DNA of 64,000 nt from a virus, in IMG/VR virus record IMGVR_UViG_3300044511_000090, positions 1-64,000 of that record; one strand, given 5' to 3'. Shown in pieces: positions 106 through 4,032 of this stretch. The first letter of the stretch is position 1. Each line of letters opens with the position of its first letter. The notes beneath the pieces are model-generated. The model did not search any database. It had not been told where the DNA came from and worked only from the letters and a program-made list of their open reading frames with translations. The position numbers and the translations under genes are program-made.

Positions 106-3100
106 ATGTTAAGCTCCTCAGACATTGCAGAACTTGAAGCCTATCTGCCGCACGCTACCGACGAAGAGAAGCGGCAAATCAATCAGCACCTTCTCTCGAT
201 CCGCAAAGTCGAAAAGAACTTCCCTTGGGCCGCTTACAGATACGACCCCATCGGCTACGCATACAACGTCCTCGGCCTCTCGATGCTCACCGAAGATCAA
301 AAGACGGCATTGAGAGCCGCCGTAACTCCGCCGTACATGGTCAAGATCGATTCAGGAAACTCGTGCGGCAAAACGCTGATTTGCGCCGTGCTCGTGAACT
401 GGCAATATGACTCCTACAATCCAGGATGCGTTTACACAACGGCCCCGTCGTCGTCGCACGTCAAGCGCGTGCTCTGGGCTCAAATACGAGACCTCAGAGC
501 CAATGCAAAGATCAATCTGCCGCAAGACTTCATTGGCCCGGCAGCGCCGGAAATGCGAAGCGACCCCAACCATTTCGCCATTGGCCTGACCGCAGATAAA
601 GGAGAAGCGATAGCTAACAGCGAAATCATCTACACACCTTCTGGTAAGAAAAAATTCGGAGACATTGCCATAGGAGACATGGTTTTCGCCTGCGATGGCT
701 CTCAAACAAAAGTGACGCATGTTTTTAAGCACTATGGAAGAAAAATTTACAAAGTAACCCTAGTAGATGGTAGGTGTGTTCGTACTGACGGGGACCACCT
801 GTGGAGCGTTATCAACCACAACTACGGCAAATACAAAACTTTCAGGCTGATGTCAACCAAAGAGATGCTGGAAACTGGCGTAACATATGGGGCAACAAAT
901 AGGCCGAAGTATTATTTGCCAACATGCGGGGCGCTGTCGTACAAGCACAAAGAAACAACAATTCCAGCATACACTATGGGGGTATGGCTTGGAGATGGGA
1001 GCTCCAGCGACAGTTCAATAACTTCTGGAGACGCTCAAATGATAGAGCTTCTCAAAAATGACAATCCGAATTGTGGCATGACGGTCAGGACTCCTAAAAA
1101 CAGGAACGCCAGCTTGATACGAATTCTTGGAATGCGTTCAAAGCTGAAATCCATTGGTATGCTTACTTCAAAATGCCGAACTAAAAGAGTCCCAACAGAA
1201 TACATGGACAACTCCACAGATGTCAGGCTAGGAGTGATCCAGGGGCTGATGGACACAGATGGGTACATAAGCCCAAATGGGACAACAAGTTTTACGTCAA
1301 CAAGCCCAGGCTTGATTGAAGACATGATGTGGCTTGTCAGATCACTTGGCGGCAGAGCATCATTAAACAACCTAGTTGACATTAAAAACGAACGATCACA
1401 CCCTTGCTACACAATGAACTTTATTCTTCCTGGATTCAGTTGCTTTAGGCTAGACAGGAAAAAACGCAGGGAAGTAAACAGAGACCGCCGAAGGGCCGCT
1501 ATTAAATCGATAGAAGAATGCGGGGTTGAAGATACTACGTGCATAAGAATCGAGCACGAAAGCAGTCTTTTTGTTATCGGAGATGGGATCGTCACCCACA
1601 ACTCCCTCAAGGGCTCTCACTTGGCGCACATGGGGTTCATTTTTGACGAAGACGAAGGATTGGGGCAGATGTATTGGGACTCGGTGCGAACCATGTTCAA
1701 GCCGACTCCAGGAATGTTCTGGCTCACGGTAGGCAACCCGTCAACAGTAAGCAGCCCTGCCTATCTCGAATCCATTCGCACGACGGACGACGGCAAGCCG
1801 ATGTGGCGCAACCTTCGCATGAGCGTGCTCGATCACCCAAACATCATTGCCGCCAGCAAGGGGCTTCCGCCTCCAATCCCCAAAGCTGTGACGGCAGAAC
1901 AGGTCGATGTCTGGGTCAAACGCCTATGCACTCCGCTTGAAGACGACGAAGAACATCGTGTCACAGACTTCCAGTGGAGAGGCAAATGGCATCGGCCAAG
2001 CGGCGAAGGCGAAACAGTCATCCTTGGTCGTCGCCCATCAACAGGAGCTTCCGGCGTCTGGTCGGACGCCCTCTGGGATGCCTGCTGCCGCCTCGAATTG
2101 CCCTTCCCAATCGACGAAATGCCCGAACTTGGCTGTGACGTGGCCAGAGTGCTTGGCGGCGATAATTGCGACATACATGCCCAATGGGGCGGCAACTCCA
2201 TCGCCCATGACTCAGCAAATGGCCGATCCATACCTGCTACAATCGCTCGGCTCAAGGAAATGGCCGAAGAGGTCTGCGAGTTTGCAAATGCCAAACGCAT
2301 CGAAATCATCAAGAACAGCAACTTAGAGCCTGAAGAAATCGCACGCGCCATGATGCACAAGCCGTGGATTCCCAAACAAATCCCCATCAAGATCGACGAT
2401 TGCGGCATCGGCAACGTCATCAGCGACTTCAAGGACGGCTGGAACTTCATCCCGGTCAATCCAGGCTGGGCCGCAAAGATGGACCTTCGCTATCCGAACG
2501 TCAGAAGCGAACTATGGTTCGAGACTATGGAAAAGGCCGTCCTCGGCGGCTTGAGTCTGCTCTACTTGCCGGAAGACGAACGGCAGATGCTCCGCATCCA
2601 GGCTTTCGCGCCAACATGGAAGCAGAACGAACGCCGAATGCGAGTTGTCGAGTCCAAAGAAGACACGAAGAAAAGACTTGGCCGATCACCGGACTGTTTT
2701 GTTGCTGGGACAAAAATCAAAACAATCAACGGAAACAAGCCAATCGAAGAAATTATGCTTGGCGAACTCGTATACACACGAAACGGATGGCATCCGGTTA
2801 TTGGGCATGGGCAAACTGAAGAAACCTCTGAAACCGTAATTGCGTCATTTTCAAACGGAGAAACGCTTGAAGCATCTCCAAACCACCCTGTTTTTGTTGA
2901 CAATAAAGGGTGGGTTCGTATCGACGCATTGGCACTGTCTGATAACATAGTCGAATGCCACAACCACAAGTTACTGTCGTGTTCAACGGGATCACTTTCA
3001 TCAGGTTCCCTGAAAGCAAAAGCGAATCTTCTCGAAAGTATTTTTACCCGTTTGCTAACAACCGAAGACTCAGTGGAATTGGCGCTCTTCATCAGGCTGT

Positions 3101-3876
3101 TTGGCGGCATCACCACGGCGAAATACCACCAAAACACGATATTCACCACGTTGATGGAAACCCTCTCAACAACGATATTTCCAACCTTGAGTGCCTCACA
3201 AAGAAAGATCATGCTGAAAGACACAGAGGCACATGCTCAGAAAGGAAGAAAGCGAACCTCGACAGGATACGCCATCTTACCAAAGAATGGCACTCAAGCG
3301 ATGAGGGAAGAAAATGGCATTCTGAGCACGCTAGGAAATCTTATGAGTCCAGAGTTCCTGTCGTCAAAACATGCGACCAGTGCAGCAAAGAATACAAAAA
3401 CTTTTCTCGCAGGGAAACAGACAGGTTTTGCTCATCTAAATGCGCTCAAAAATGGTATTACAGACATAAAACAATGTTTGTTGAATCTTCTTGCCCTGAG
3501 TGCGGAATCAAAACTAAAAAGCAGCCTGGGCGCGGCAAGAAGTGCTGCTCTCAATCATGTGGTGCGCGTAGAAGGTGGAGGCTCAAAAAAGAAGGTGTTC
3601 AATCTGACAGTTGATTCTGAGCATGAGTATTTTGCAAACGGAATACTCGTACACAATTGCATGGACGCCTTCAACTTGGCCCATTTTCACGCCAATTTCG
3701 GCTCTCCAAAGCTCATATCTATCGAGACCGGCGTATCTCGCGCAAGCAAAACGATGGGCGCTCGCATCGGCATCGGTGGCATCGGCCAGCGCGGGTCACA
3801 ACCAGCTGCTGACCGAGGCGAAGAACCGCCGCGAAGGGAAGAAAAGCGATCACTTTGGGGAAAGAACAGGCGGTGA
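106..3876 (+). CDS. terL: Terminase large subunit (TerL) precursor with two inteins
   Basis: ATP-driven DNA-packaging motor and headful or cos nuclease. The 1256-residue product is about 603 residues after removal of two inteins, a normal TerL size. Walker A is DSGNSCGKT near residues 82-90. Walker B is GFIFDEDEG near residue 510. The RNase H-like nuclease acidic sites are ELGCDVA, KIDDCG and GRSPD followed by CMDAF. Intein 1 sits between GLTADKGE and SLKGSH, just before Walker B. Intein 2 sits at the last nuclease motif, between GRSPD and CMDAF. Both are conserved active-site positions, as expected for intein insertion sites. ATG 106 is the first start after an in-frame TAG; no good ribosome-binding site is visible. 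It is the only plus-strand gene at this end and faces the minus-strand cluster that carries the small subunit. Confidence 0.93.
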   Translation: MLSSSDIAELEAYLPHATDEEKRQINQHLLSIRKVEKNFPWAAYRYDPIGYAYNVLGLSMLTEDQKTALRAAVTPPYMVKIDSGNSCGKTLICAVLVNWQYDSYNPGCVYTTAPSSSHVKRVLWAQIRDLRANAKINLPQDFIGPAAPEMRSDPNHFAIGLTADKGEAIANSEIIYTPSGKKKFGDIAIGDMVFACDGSQTKVTHVFKHYGRKIYKVTLVDGRCVRTDGDHLWSVINHNYGKYKTFRLMSTKEMLETGVTYGATNRPKYYLPTCGALSYKHKETTIPAYTMGVWLGDGSSSDSSITSGDAQMIELLKNDNPNCGMTVRTPKNRNASLIRILGMRSKLKSIGMLTSKCRTKRVPTEYMDNSTDVRLGVIQGLMDTDGYISPNGTTSFTSTSPGLIEDMMWLVRSLGGRASLNNLVDIKNERSHPCYTMNFILPGFSCFRLDRKKRREVNRDRRRAAIKSIEECGVEDTTCIRIEHESSLFVIGDGIVTHNSLKGSHLAHMGFIFDEDEGLGQMYWDSVRTMFKPTPGMFWLTVGNPSTVSSPAYLESIRTTDDGKPMWRNLRMSVLDHPNIIAASKGLPPPIPKAVTAEQVDVWVKRLCTPLEDDEEHRVTDFQWRGKWHRPSGEGETVILGRRPSTGASGVWSDALWDACCRLELPFPIDEMPELGCDVARVLGGDNCDIHAQWGGNSIAHDSANGRSIPATIARLKEMAEEVCEFANAKRIEIIKNSNLEPEEIARAMMHKPWIPKQIPIKIDDCGIGNVISDFKDGWNFIPVNPGWAAKMDLRYPNVRSELWFETMEKAVLGGLSLLYLPEDERQMLRIQAFAPTWKQNERRMRVVESKEDTKKRLGRSPDCFVAGTKIKTINGNKPIEEIMLGELVYTRNGWHPVIGHGQTEETSETVIASFSNGETLEASPNHPVFVDNKGWVRIDALALSDNIVECHNHKLLSCSTGSLSSGSLKAKANLLESIFTRLLTTEDSVELALFIRLFGGITTAKYHQNTIFTTLMETLSTTIFPTLSASQRKIMLKDTEAHAQKGRKRTSTGYAILPKNGTQAMREENGILSTLGNLMSPEFLSSKHATSAAKNTKTFLAGKQTGFAHLNALKNGITDIKQCLLNLLALSAESKLKSSLGAARSAALNHVVRVEGGGSKKKVFNLTVDSEHEYFANGILVHNCMDAFNLAHFHANFGSPKLISIETGVSRASKTMGARIGIGGIGQRGSQPAADRGEEPPRREEKRSLWGKNRR
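607..1602 (+). other. Intein 1 in TerL, with LAGLIDADG endonuclease domain
   Basis: 332-residue intein. The N-terminal splice block starts with Ala (AIANSEIIYTPSG) rather than Cys or Ser, so this belongs to the Ala1 class, which splices by direct attack from the +1 residue. Block B is RTDGDHLW. The C-terminal block ends VIGDGIVTHN with Ser as +1. Two LAGLIDADG helices are visible: YTMGVWLGDGSS at about precursor residues 289-300 and LGVIQGLMDTDGY at about 375-387. The homing domain therefore looks intact. Removing the intein rejoins GLTADKGE to SLKGSH, which matches TerL sequences. Confidence 0.9.
2695..3657 (+). other. Intein 2 in TerL; middle segment overlaps an out-of-frame HNH gene
   Basis: 321-residue intein starting CFVAGTKIKTINGNKPIEEI and ending EYFANGILVHN with Cys as +1. 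Block B is SPNHPVFV. The splice blocks are standard, about 85 residues at the N side and 35 at the C side. The roughly 200 residues between them, rich in L, S, T and K, show no LAGLIDADG or HNH motif in this frame. Instead the same DNA encodes an HNH endonuclease in another frame (2955-3614). The intein frame stays open through that whole stretch, as splicing requires. Confidence 0.9.
2955..3614 (+). CDS. HNH homing endonuclease nested out of frame in TerL intein 2
   Basis: 219 residues, read two bases out of phase with the terminase. The HNH core is clear: LHQAVWRHHHGEIPPKHDIH followed by HVDGNPLNNDISNLE and LTKKDHAERH. This matches phage HNH_3-type homing endonucleases, including the preceding strand VTVVFNGITFIRFP. 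The C-terminal half carries paired-cysteine zinc knuckles (CDQCSKEY, FCSSKCAQKW, CPECG, CCSQSCG) like those of the HNH protein at 9406-9921. The start is the first ATG of the frame; no strong Shine-Dalgarno is visible. The stop falls just inside the C-terminal splice block. It could be translated independently from the terL mRNA. I have no evidence for how it is expressed. Confidence 0.85.
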   Translation: MPQPQVTVVFNGITFIRFPESKSESSRKYFYPFANNRRLSGIGALHQAVWRHHHGEIPPKHDIHHVDGNPLNNDISNLECLTKKDHAERHRGTCSERKKANLDRIRHLTKEWHSSDEGRKWHSEHARKSYESRVPVVKTCDQCSKEYKNFSRRETDRFCSSKCAQKWYYRHKTMFVESSCPECGIKTKKQPGRGKKCCSQSCGARRRWRLKKEGVQSDS

Positions 3877-4032
3877 TACTCGCTTGTTCTTTGCAATTCG
3901 GCCACATCCAGAACAGAAAAAACACTTCGGGCAAACCTTGTCAAAGTTTGTGAATGAATATGGCTTTTTGTAAGTGCCATGCCCGCAATTCTTACAAACA
4001 ATCGGGCACGTAGGAGCAGCACCGTTCGGCAT
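3850..4032 (-). CDS. Small multi-cysteine zinc-ribbon protein
   Basis: 60 residues with cysteine pairs (CPIVCKNCG, VCPKCFFCSGCG) that suggest one or two zinc sites. It is last in the minus-strand cluster and overlaps the 3' end of terL. The frame upstream of this ATG stays open back to the TAG stop of the preceding gene and there contains DYCPRSGCG, another cysteine pair. No start codon lies in that upstream stretch. Either the protein starts at this ATG or it is a read-through extension of the previous product. Function unknown. Confidence 0.5.
   Translation of the reverse strand: MPNGAAPTCPIVCKNCGHGTYKKPYSFTNFDKVCPKCFFCSGCGRIAKNKRVSPPVLSPK
3861..3892. terminator. Bidirectional hairpin between convergent genes
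   Basis: An 11-of-12 base-pair stem (arms AAAGAACAGGCG and CGCTTGTTCTTT, 8-base loop) spans the terL stop codon. The outer A and T bases give a short U tract in either direction. It sits exactly where the plus-strand terL and the minus-strand cluster meet. Confidence 0.55.

What the first reader, a model, noticed from the sequence alone, without database searches (positions are those of the whole stretch)
2695..3657. An HNH endonuclease gene lies out of frame inside a terminase intein, leaving 660 bases open in two frames
The intein frame is open from splice block A to block G, which splicing requires, but its middle 200 residues carry no endonuclease motif. The same bases in another frame encode a complete HNH protein (H-H in HDIHHVDGN, N in NLE, then zinc knuckles). 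A free-standing homing gene may have landed in a mini-intein and been kept because the intein frame happened to stay open, or the two frames were selected together. A mobile element hosted inside another, with a real overlap, is rare; I know of no described case of this exact layout.
Basis: partly seen in the sequence, partly recalled or inferred. Interest (0 to 1): 0.86.

Follow-up and report, generated by a model that had tools for sequence, protein, structure and literature searches.

The report
Inteins hiding an out-of-frame homing gene
A self-splicing insert in a phage DNA-packaging gene carries its DNA-cutting "homing" enzyme in a second, overlapping reading frame, and the same two-frame layout recurs in more than 140 distinct phage and prophage sequences across bacteria and archaea, so it is a widespread and long-kept kind of selfish element and not a chance oddity.

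Summary
The window's TerL-like ORF (106-3876) holds a class-1-type intein at 2695-3657. A complete HNH endonuclease gene (2955-3614) lies inside it in the -1 phase. The layout is not rare. In IMG/VR, GTDB genomes and isolate phages I found 166 such inteins, the window included (144 distinct HNH genes), with the HNH in the same phase and the intein frame open. There were no in-frame cases and none in the other phase. An HNH-blind scan gave 79 of 80. Across the 144 HNH genes the intein frame has 0 stops, against 282 expected after shuffling synonymous codons; free-standing relatives have many. AlphaFold2 folds the HNH frame (pLDDT 94) and the two intein ends (about 97), but not the intein-frame middle (about 42). 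HNH starts often carry Shine-Dalgarno sites and mostly sit just after stops in their own frame, so internal initiation is likelier than frameshifting. Identical inteins in diverged TerLs show recent mobility. Related forms include fractured (split) inteins, free-standing HNH genes and mini-inteins. A second family carries a NUMOD4-HNH antisense inside another TerL intein. The closest published case, ShiLan, is not in an intein. Splicing, translation and cleavage are untested.

The parts
106..3876 (+). TerL-like host ORF (1256 aa) with two inteins
   Evidence: Open ORF. Walker A SGNSCGKT and Walker B FIFDEDE read directly. Spliced exteins match only phrog_5902 (unknown function) at 1.9e-7, so TerL identity in the window rests on motifs, on the insertion site and on relatives with Pfam terminase domains.
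2695..3657 (+). Intein 2, 321 aa, class-1-type residues (Cys1, block B His, His-Asn, Cys+1)
   Evidence: insertion at the TerL nuclease motif shared by relatives.
2695..2958 (+). N-terminal splicing domain (blocks A and B)
   Evidence: HMM match 7e-40; AlphaFold2 pLDDT about 97 for residues 1-80 and 88 for 81-90.
2940..2945 (+). TGA TAA stops in the HNH frame just before its ATG
   Evidence: Sequence; argues against a -1 frameshift entry upstream.
2955..3614 (+). HNH homing-endonuclease gene, 219 aa, in the -1 phase of the intein frame; two zinc-finger cysteine sets towards its C-terminus; 3' end overlaps intein block F
   Evidence: PF13392 1.6e-16, phrog_15471 9.7e-27, AlphaFold2 pLDDT 94.
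2962..3549 (+). Intein-frame linker: open, not conserved, predicted disordered (about intein residues 90-285)
   Evidence: pLDDT about 42; low conservation.
3556..3660 (+). C-terminal splicing domain (blocks F and G) plus Cys+1
   Evidence: HMM match 8e-21; TIGR01443; pLDDT about 90-97.

Best explanation
This is a mobile intein of the TerL nuclease-domain site whose homing endonuclease is encoded not as an in-frame domain but as a separate, nested gene in the -1 phase. Two products come from one stretch of DNA. (a) Ribosomes reading terL make a precursor in which two well-folded Hint halves flank a ~190-residue unconserved, probably disordered linker; the intein excises itself and restores TerL [inferred from intact catalytic residues and fold]. 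(b) Other ribosomes start inside the mRNA at the HNH ATG (in most relatives with a Shine-Dalgarno site) and make a free HNH zinc-finger endonuclease [inferred]. The nuclease cuts intein-less terL at the conserved nuclease-motif codons, and repair copies intein plus HNH in as one unit [inferred; recent transfer of the whole unit is shown by sequence]. Selection keeps the HNH protein and forbids stops in the intein frame; the linker's amino acids hardly matter [shown]. The constant phase follows because only that frame is nearly stop-free for these proteins (about 2 vs 17 expected stops per gene), helped by common ancestry.
For: Same phase and open intein frame in 166 loci, 0 in-frame, 0 in the third frame. 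0 stops vs 282 expected in 144 distinct HNH genes; free-standing relatives: 78 stops in 11 genes. HNH-frame purifying selection: position differences 1167/971/2064 over 27 independent pairs; HNH pN 0.17, pS 0.49 in the 14 pairs with alignable flanks. AlphaFold2: HNH 94, Hint halves about 97, linker about 42. SD cores of 4 or more bases at 63% of HNH starts vs 18% in controls, 5 or more at 21.5% vs 0.4%; 70 of 79 starts ATG; HNH frame closed within 60 nt upstream in 62 of 79. Mobility: intein DNA 100% identical between TerLs whose N-exteins are 85% or 88% identical (L070/L071, L163/L164), 98-100% vs 84% (L220/L221), 81-93% vs 45% (L180/L195). HNH-deleted mini-intein and shortened derivatives keep the splicing blocks (L174, L168, L224).
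Against: No experiment on splicing, translation or cleavage. The window's own HNH start has no visible SD, and about a third of relatives also lack one. The two IMG/VR scans keep only the best 80 hits and seed from this family, so 'universal' applies to this family only. Joint probabilities ignore shared ancestry. Taking the start with the best SD biases upwards, although the control was given the same number of choices. Weak extra constraint on the intein-frame residues (mean z 0.58, P 0.011) leaves room for some linker function.
Confidence: 0.86

Rival explanations
1. Programmed -1 ribosomal frameshifting from the intein frame makes a TerL-IntN-HNH fusion; internal initiation is not used.
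For: HNH is always in the -1 phase, the phase a -1 shift would reach; some loci have a long upstream open HNH frame (L004, L021, L031).
Against: In 62 of 79 loci a stop lies within 60 nt upstream of the HNH start, in the window at 2940-2945; starts are mostly ATG with enriched SD sites; the phase is explained by stop statistics.
Confidence: 0.06
2. Chance open frame: the HNH gene landed in the intein and its second frame is open only because of composition.
For: For the window alone P(no stop) is 0.125 after synonymous shuffling.
Against: 0 vs 282 stops across the family; free-standing relatives have 3-13 stops in the same frame.
Confidence: 0.01
3. The intein-frame linker is a functional domain (for example DNA binding or a splicing regulator) and the two proteins are truly co-selected.
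For: HNH synonymous divergence is lower than in the flanks (0.49 vs 0.585, P 0.04, 14 pairs) and synonymous differences slightly favour similar intein-frame residues (P 0.011).
Against: 47% vs 69% identity; no predicted structure; linker deleted or shortened in L174, L168/L170, L224 and L216 while splicing blocks persist.
Confidence: 0.05
4. The HNH frame is a decaying relic and the element is a splicing-only intein.
For: A few shortened derivatives exist.
Against: Catalytic H, N and H and zinc ligands invariant or nearly so in 36-40 aligned sequences; pN/pS about 0.35; signs of recent transfer.
Confidence: 0.02

Closest known systems
ShiLan domain: out-of-frame HNH insert in an actinobacteriophage DNA methylase (Arsenault, Gosselin, Gogarten 2025, PMC11855218), also Pacc40 gp60
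   Same: HNH gene nested out of frame in a phage gene whose own frame stays open through it; mobile distribution; mode of translation unknown.
   Different: ShiLan has no splicing domain and is neither intein nor intron, so it is thought to stay in a dispensable methylase. Here the HNH sits inside a complete intein in a packaging gene, across phages of many host phyla, with SD sites and statistical proof of two-frame maintenance.
Canonical mobile inteins with in-frame LAGLIDADG or HNH domain, e.g. mycobacteriophage TerL inteins (PMC5050341)
   Same: Hint splicing domain, insertion in TerL, mobility.
   Different: There the endonuclease is an in-frame domain excised with the intein, and all insertions are in the ATPase domain. 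Here it is a separate product from another frame and the site is the nuclease-domain acidic motif.
Fractured genes / naturally split inteins with a free-standing endonuclease gene between the halves (Dassa et al. 2009; from my knowledge, paper not held)
   Same: Endonuclease gene as its own ORF between IntN and IntC. Relatives in this family are in exactly that state (L104, L106, L107, L121, L109). The intein profile's best solved relatives include gp41-1 and NrdJ-1, which I recall as split inteins.
   Different: In the window and the other nested loci the host and intein frame is unbroken, giving one precursor and cis-splicing.
Group I introns with nested HNH genes (I-HmuI type)
   Same: Homing gene as a separate ORF within a self-removing element; weak structural similarity of HNH to I-HmuI (E 0.26).
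   Different: Removal here would be at protein level; no Rfam intron match at 2400-3900.

Membership tests
Intein (class 1) | Hint fold with Cys/Ser1, block B His, C-terminal Asn, Cys/Ser/Thr+1, frame open between exteins | tested here: met
Intein (class 1) | Protein splicing occurs | not testable with these tools
   Needs expression of the precursor.
Canonical intein with in-frame endonuclease domain | Endonuclease domain in the intein reading frame | tested here: not met
   No nuclease family in the intein frame of intein 2; HNH in the -1 phase.
HNH homing endonuclease (PF13392) | HNH_3 domain with conserved H, N, H and zinc-binding residues | tested here: met
HNH homing endonuclease (PF13392) | Cuts the insert-less allele and promotes its own copying | tested here: inconclusive
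   Indirect: near-identical inteins in diverged TerLs; cleavage not tested.
ShiLan-type hidden HNH | HNH ORF out of frame in an open host gene, with no splicing domain | tested here: not met
   Splicing domains present.
Fractured gene with split intein | Host and intein frame interrupted by stops; IntN and IntC made separately | tested here: not met
   Window frame unbroken; met in L104, L106, L107, L121, L109.
Group I intron | Conserved intron RNA core | tested here: not met
   No Rfam match, E up to 1.

The most novel reading that the evidence does not exclude
A major, previously unrecognised architecture of mobile inteins in which the homing endonuclease is a separate gene overprinted on the intein. 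It has arisen at least twice in phage terminases (sense -1 phase with HNH and zinc fingers at the nuclease site; antisense codon-aligned NUMOD4-HNH at the Walker B site) and may be an intermediate between mini-inteins, free-standing homing genes and naturally split inteins.
Probability: 0.7. Interest if true: 0.9.

Novelty: new variant of a known kind. Interest (0 to 1): 0.86.

Why it matters
Gene callers keep the long terL ORF and tend to miss the nested nuclease: in Highwayman, TJE1 and LS06 only the terminase is annotated over it. The family is a large natural set of long (roughly 400-660 bp) overlapping coding regions in phages of bacteria and archaea with clear controls: free-standing relatives, deletion derivatives and fractured forms. 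It makes testable how a homing gene enters an intein without breaking the host protein, how overlapping genes persist, and how split inteins, useful tools in biotechnology, may originate. New split and mini-inteins can be mined from it.

Tried and rejected
DNA-level search for the window's insert in phages found nothing, so the work relied on protein searches. IntN-only alignment A3 was too variable to scan with; replaced by IntC alignment A6. In-frame HNH, frameshift error and group I intron were considered and rejected. Hydropathy of the intein-frame peptide was checked for selection towards hydrophilic linkers; it is slightly the other way (mean z +0.52), so no 'solubility selection' is claimed. 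The HNH model has no confident PDB match. Spliced window exteins gave no PDB or named terminase hit. The preprint on actinobacteriophage inteins with 'non-canonical architecture' (10.1101/2025.01.02.630785) and Dassa 2009 are not held, so prior description there cannot be excluded.

Full report
OBSERVATION. The window (G000, a 74,144-base virus record) begins with a 1256-aa TerL-like ORF at 106-3876. Two inteins interrupt it: a LAGLIDADG one near residues 168-500 and a second at 2695-3657, the one in the finding. Within the second, an ORF at 2955-3614, in the -1 phase relative to terL, encodes a 219-aa HNH protein (PF13392, 1.6e-16). Its ATG closely follows TGA TAA in its own frame.

IS IT CHANCE? 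For this locus alone, shuffling synonymous codons of the HNH gene leaves 1.4 intein-frame stops on average and P(none) = 0.125. A single case would be only suggestive; the family decides it.

THE FAMILY. tblastn against isolate phages showed HNH relatives lying out of frame in annotated terL genes of Acinetobacter phage Highwayman, Tetrasphaera phage TJE1 and Rhodobacteraceae phage LS06. An IMG/VR scan with an HNH alignment gave 80 loci (529 relatives passed). With profiles for the intein halves and HNH, 76 of the 80 loci, plus the three isolate phages and the window, have both intein halves in one open ORF with HNH in the same phase. A scan seeded only with the intein's C-terminal block and TerL flank, blind to HNH, gave the same layout in 79 of 80 (in four of these the contig is cut before the N-terminal half), with one HNH-less mini-intein of 127 aa (L174) and several shortened derivatives. 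A scan of GTDB genomes added 10 more, in contigs binned to Bacteroidota, Myxococcota, Acidobacteriota, Pseudomonadota and candidate phyla. In all, 166 such loci, the window counted once, were classified, with none in frame and none in the third frame. Some contigs were fetched twice; 144 have distinct HNH sequences.

SELECTION ON TWO FRAMES. In 144 distinct HNH genes the intein frame has no stop, against 282 expected from synonymous shuffling (log10 P about -182 if independent, which they are not). Eleven free-standing relatives have 78 stops in that frame. Amino-acid choice is also adapted: 2.5 vs 3.5 expected stops per 100 codons under uniform codon use, P 5e-5. The remaining frame has about 17 stops per gene, which explains why only one phase occurs. 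In 27 independent pairs HNH residues are 69% identical and intein-frame residues 47%; HNH codon-position differences are 1167/971/2064. HNH synonymous divergence is slightly below that of the flanks (0.49 vs 0.585, P 0.04), and synonymous differences slightly favour similar intein-frame residues (P 0.011). So the HNH protein is selected, stops are forbidden in the intein frame, and the linker's residues matter little.

STRUCTURE. AlphaFold2 with a 37-row alignment gives the intein frame two confident ends (residues 1-89 and 285-321, about 97) and a structureless middle (about 42); the ends match gp41-1, DnaB and NrdJ-1 inteins. The HNH frame folds at 94. Splicing residues and HNH/zinc residues are invariant or nearly so.

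EXPRESSION. Of 79 loci with a usable start, 70 use ATG. An SD core of 4 or more bases precedes 63% (18% in matched controls), and of 5 or more 21.5% (0.4%). In 62 of 79 the HNH frame is closed within 60 nt upstream. Internal initiation is therefore favoured over -1 frameshifting. The window's own start lacks an SD.

MOBILITY. Inteins are identical while N-exteins are 85% (L070/L071) or 88% (L163/L164) identical; 98-100% vs 84% (L220/L221); 81-93% vs 45% (L180/L195). L159/L160 share HNH (98%) and IntC (100%) but IntN only 73%, a recombination join. The insertion point is a conserved acidic motif of the TerL nuclease domain, typically (D/N)H^C followed by DA-RY, with small shifts. Of ten hosts tested, seven have Pfam terminase matches above the cut-off or nearly so and one more a weaker one. 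The window's own exteins match no named terminase family, so there the TerL assignment is inferred from motifs and site.

RELATED STATES. Five loci show the fractured arrangement: TerL-IntN ending in a stop, HNH, then IntC-TerL as its own ORF (L104, L106, L107, L121, L109; two more incomplete, L100 and L122), and Vibrio phage 1.245.O looks alike. Other relatives are free-standing, several beside terminase genes. On an HNH tree the nested state is widespread and free-standing forms are scattered in it, with weak deep support. One reading is that nested, fractured and free-standing forms interconvert; direction is not resolved.

A SECOND INVENTION. In Escherichia phage BUCT618 and IMG/VR loci L229, L230, L231, L233, L235 (and L234, partial), a TerL intein at the Walker B site carries a NUMOD4-HNH gene on the opposite strand, codon-aligned, with no TTA, CTA or TCA codon (the codons that would put stops in terL).

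NOVELTY. The only held paper close to this is ShiLan (PMC11855218), an out-of-frame HNH in a methylase without splicing domains. Mycobacteriophage TerL inteins in PMC5050341 lie in the ATPase domain. Nothing listed in ten searches describes an out-of-frame or antisense endonuclease inside an intein, but subscription papers and one relevant 2025 preprint are not held. I therefore call it a new variant of a known kind.

WHAT IS SHOWN AND WHAT IS INFERRED. Shown by sequence: the layout, its breadth, stop avoidance, HNH purifying selection, whole-unit transfer. Inferred: splicing, internal initiation, cleavage and homing.

Noticed in passing
L008 (BUCT618) 1001-1672 +; L229 3462-4151; L230 2618-3319; L231 514-1263; L233 3453-4175; L235 3198-3929: A second hidden-endonuclease family: NUMOD4-HNH gene antisense and codon-aligned inside a TerL intein at the Walker B site, with zero TTA/CTA/TCA codons.
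   Followed up: partly
L104, L106, L107, L121, L109: Prophage-like loci with TerL split between IntN and IntC ORFs and the same HNH family between them: candidate new natural split inteins.
   Followed up: partly
L096 around 3982-3984: In a Candidatus Methanimicrococcus contig the intein frame is open except for one TAG; related archaea that I know of decode TAG as pyrrolysine, so the frame may be read through.
   Followed up: no
L085 2233-3999: One TerL ORF carries two inteins, each with its own out-of-frame HNH.
   Followed up: no
window about 607-1610: First intein of the same TerL-like ORF, LAGLIDADG type, apparently starting with Ala rather than Cys or Ser.
   Followed up: no
L095 3411-3445 and L137 3090-3115: Two bacterial-genome loci with a single frame break between IntN and the rest of an otherwise intact nested element; sequencing error or real break unknown.
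   Followed up: no
L174 3695-4075; L168 and L170 3641-4084: Short inteins of about 127 and 148 aa at the same TerL site that lost all or most of the HNH: compact splicing domains.
   Followed up: partly
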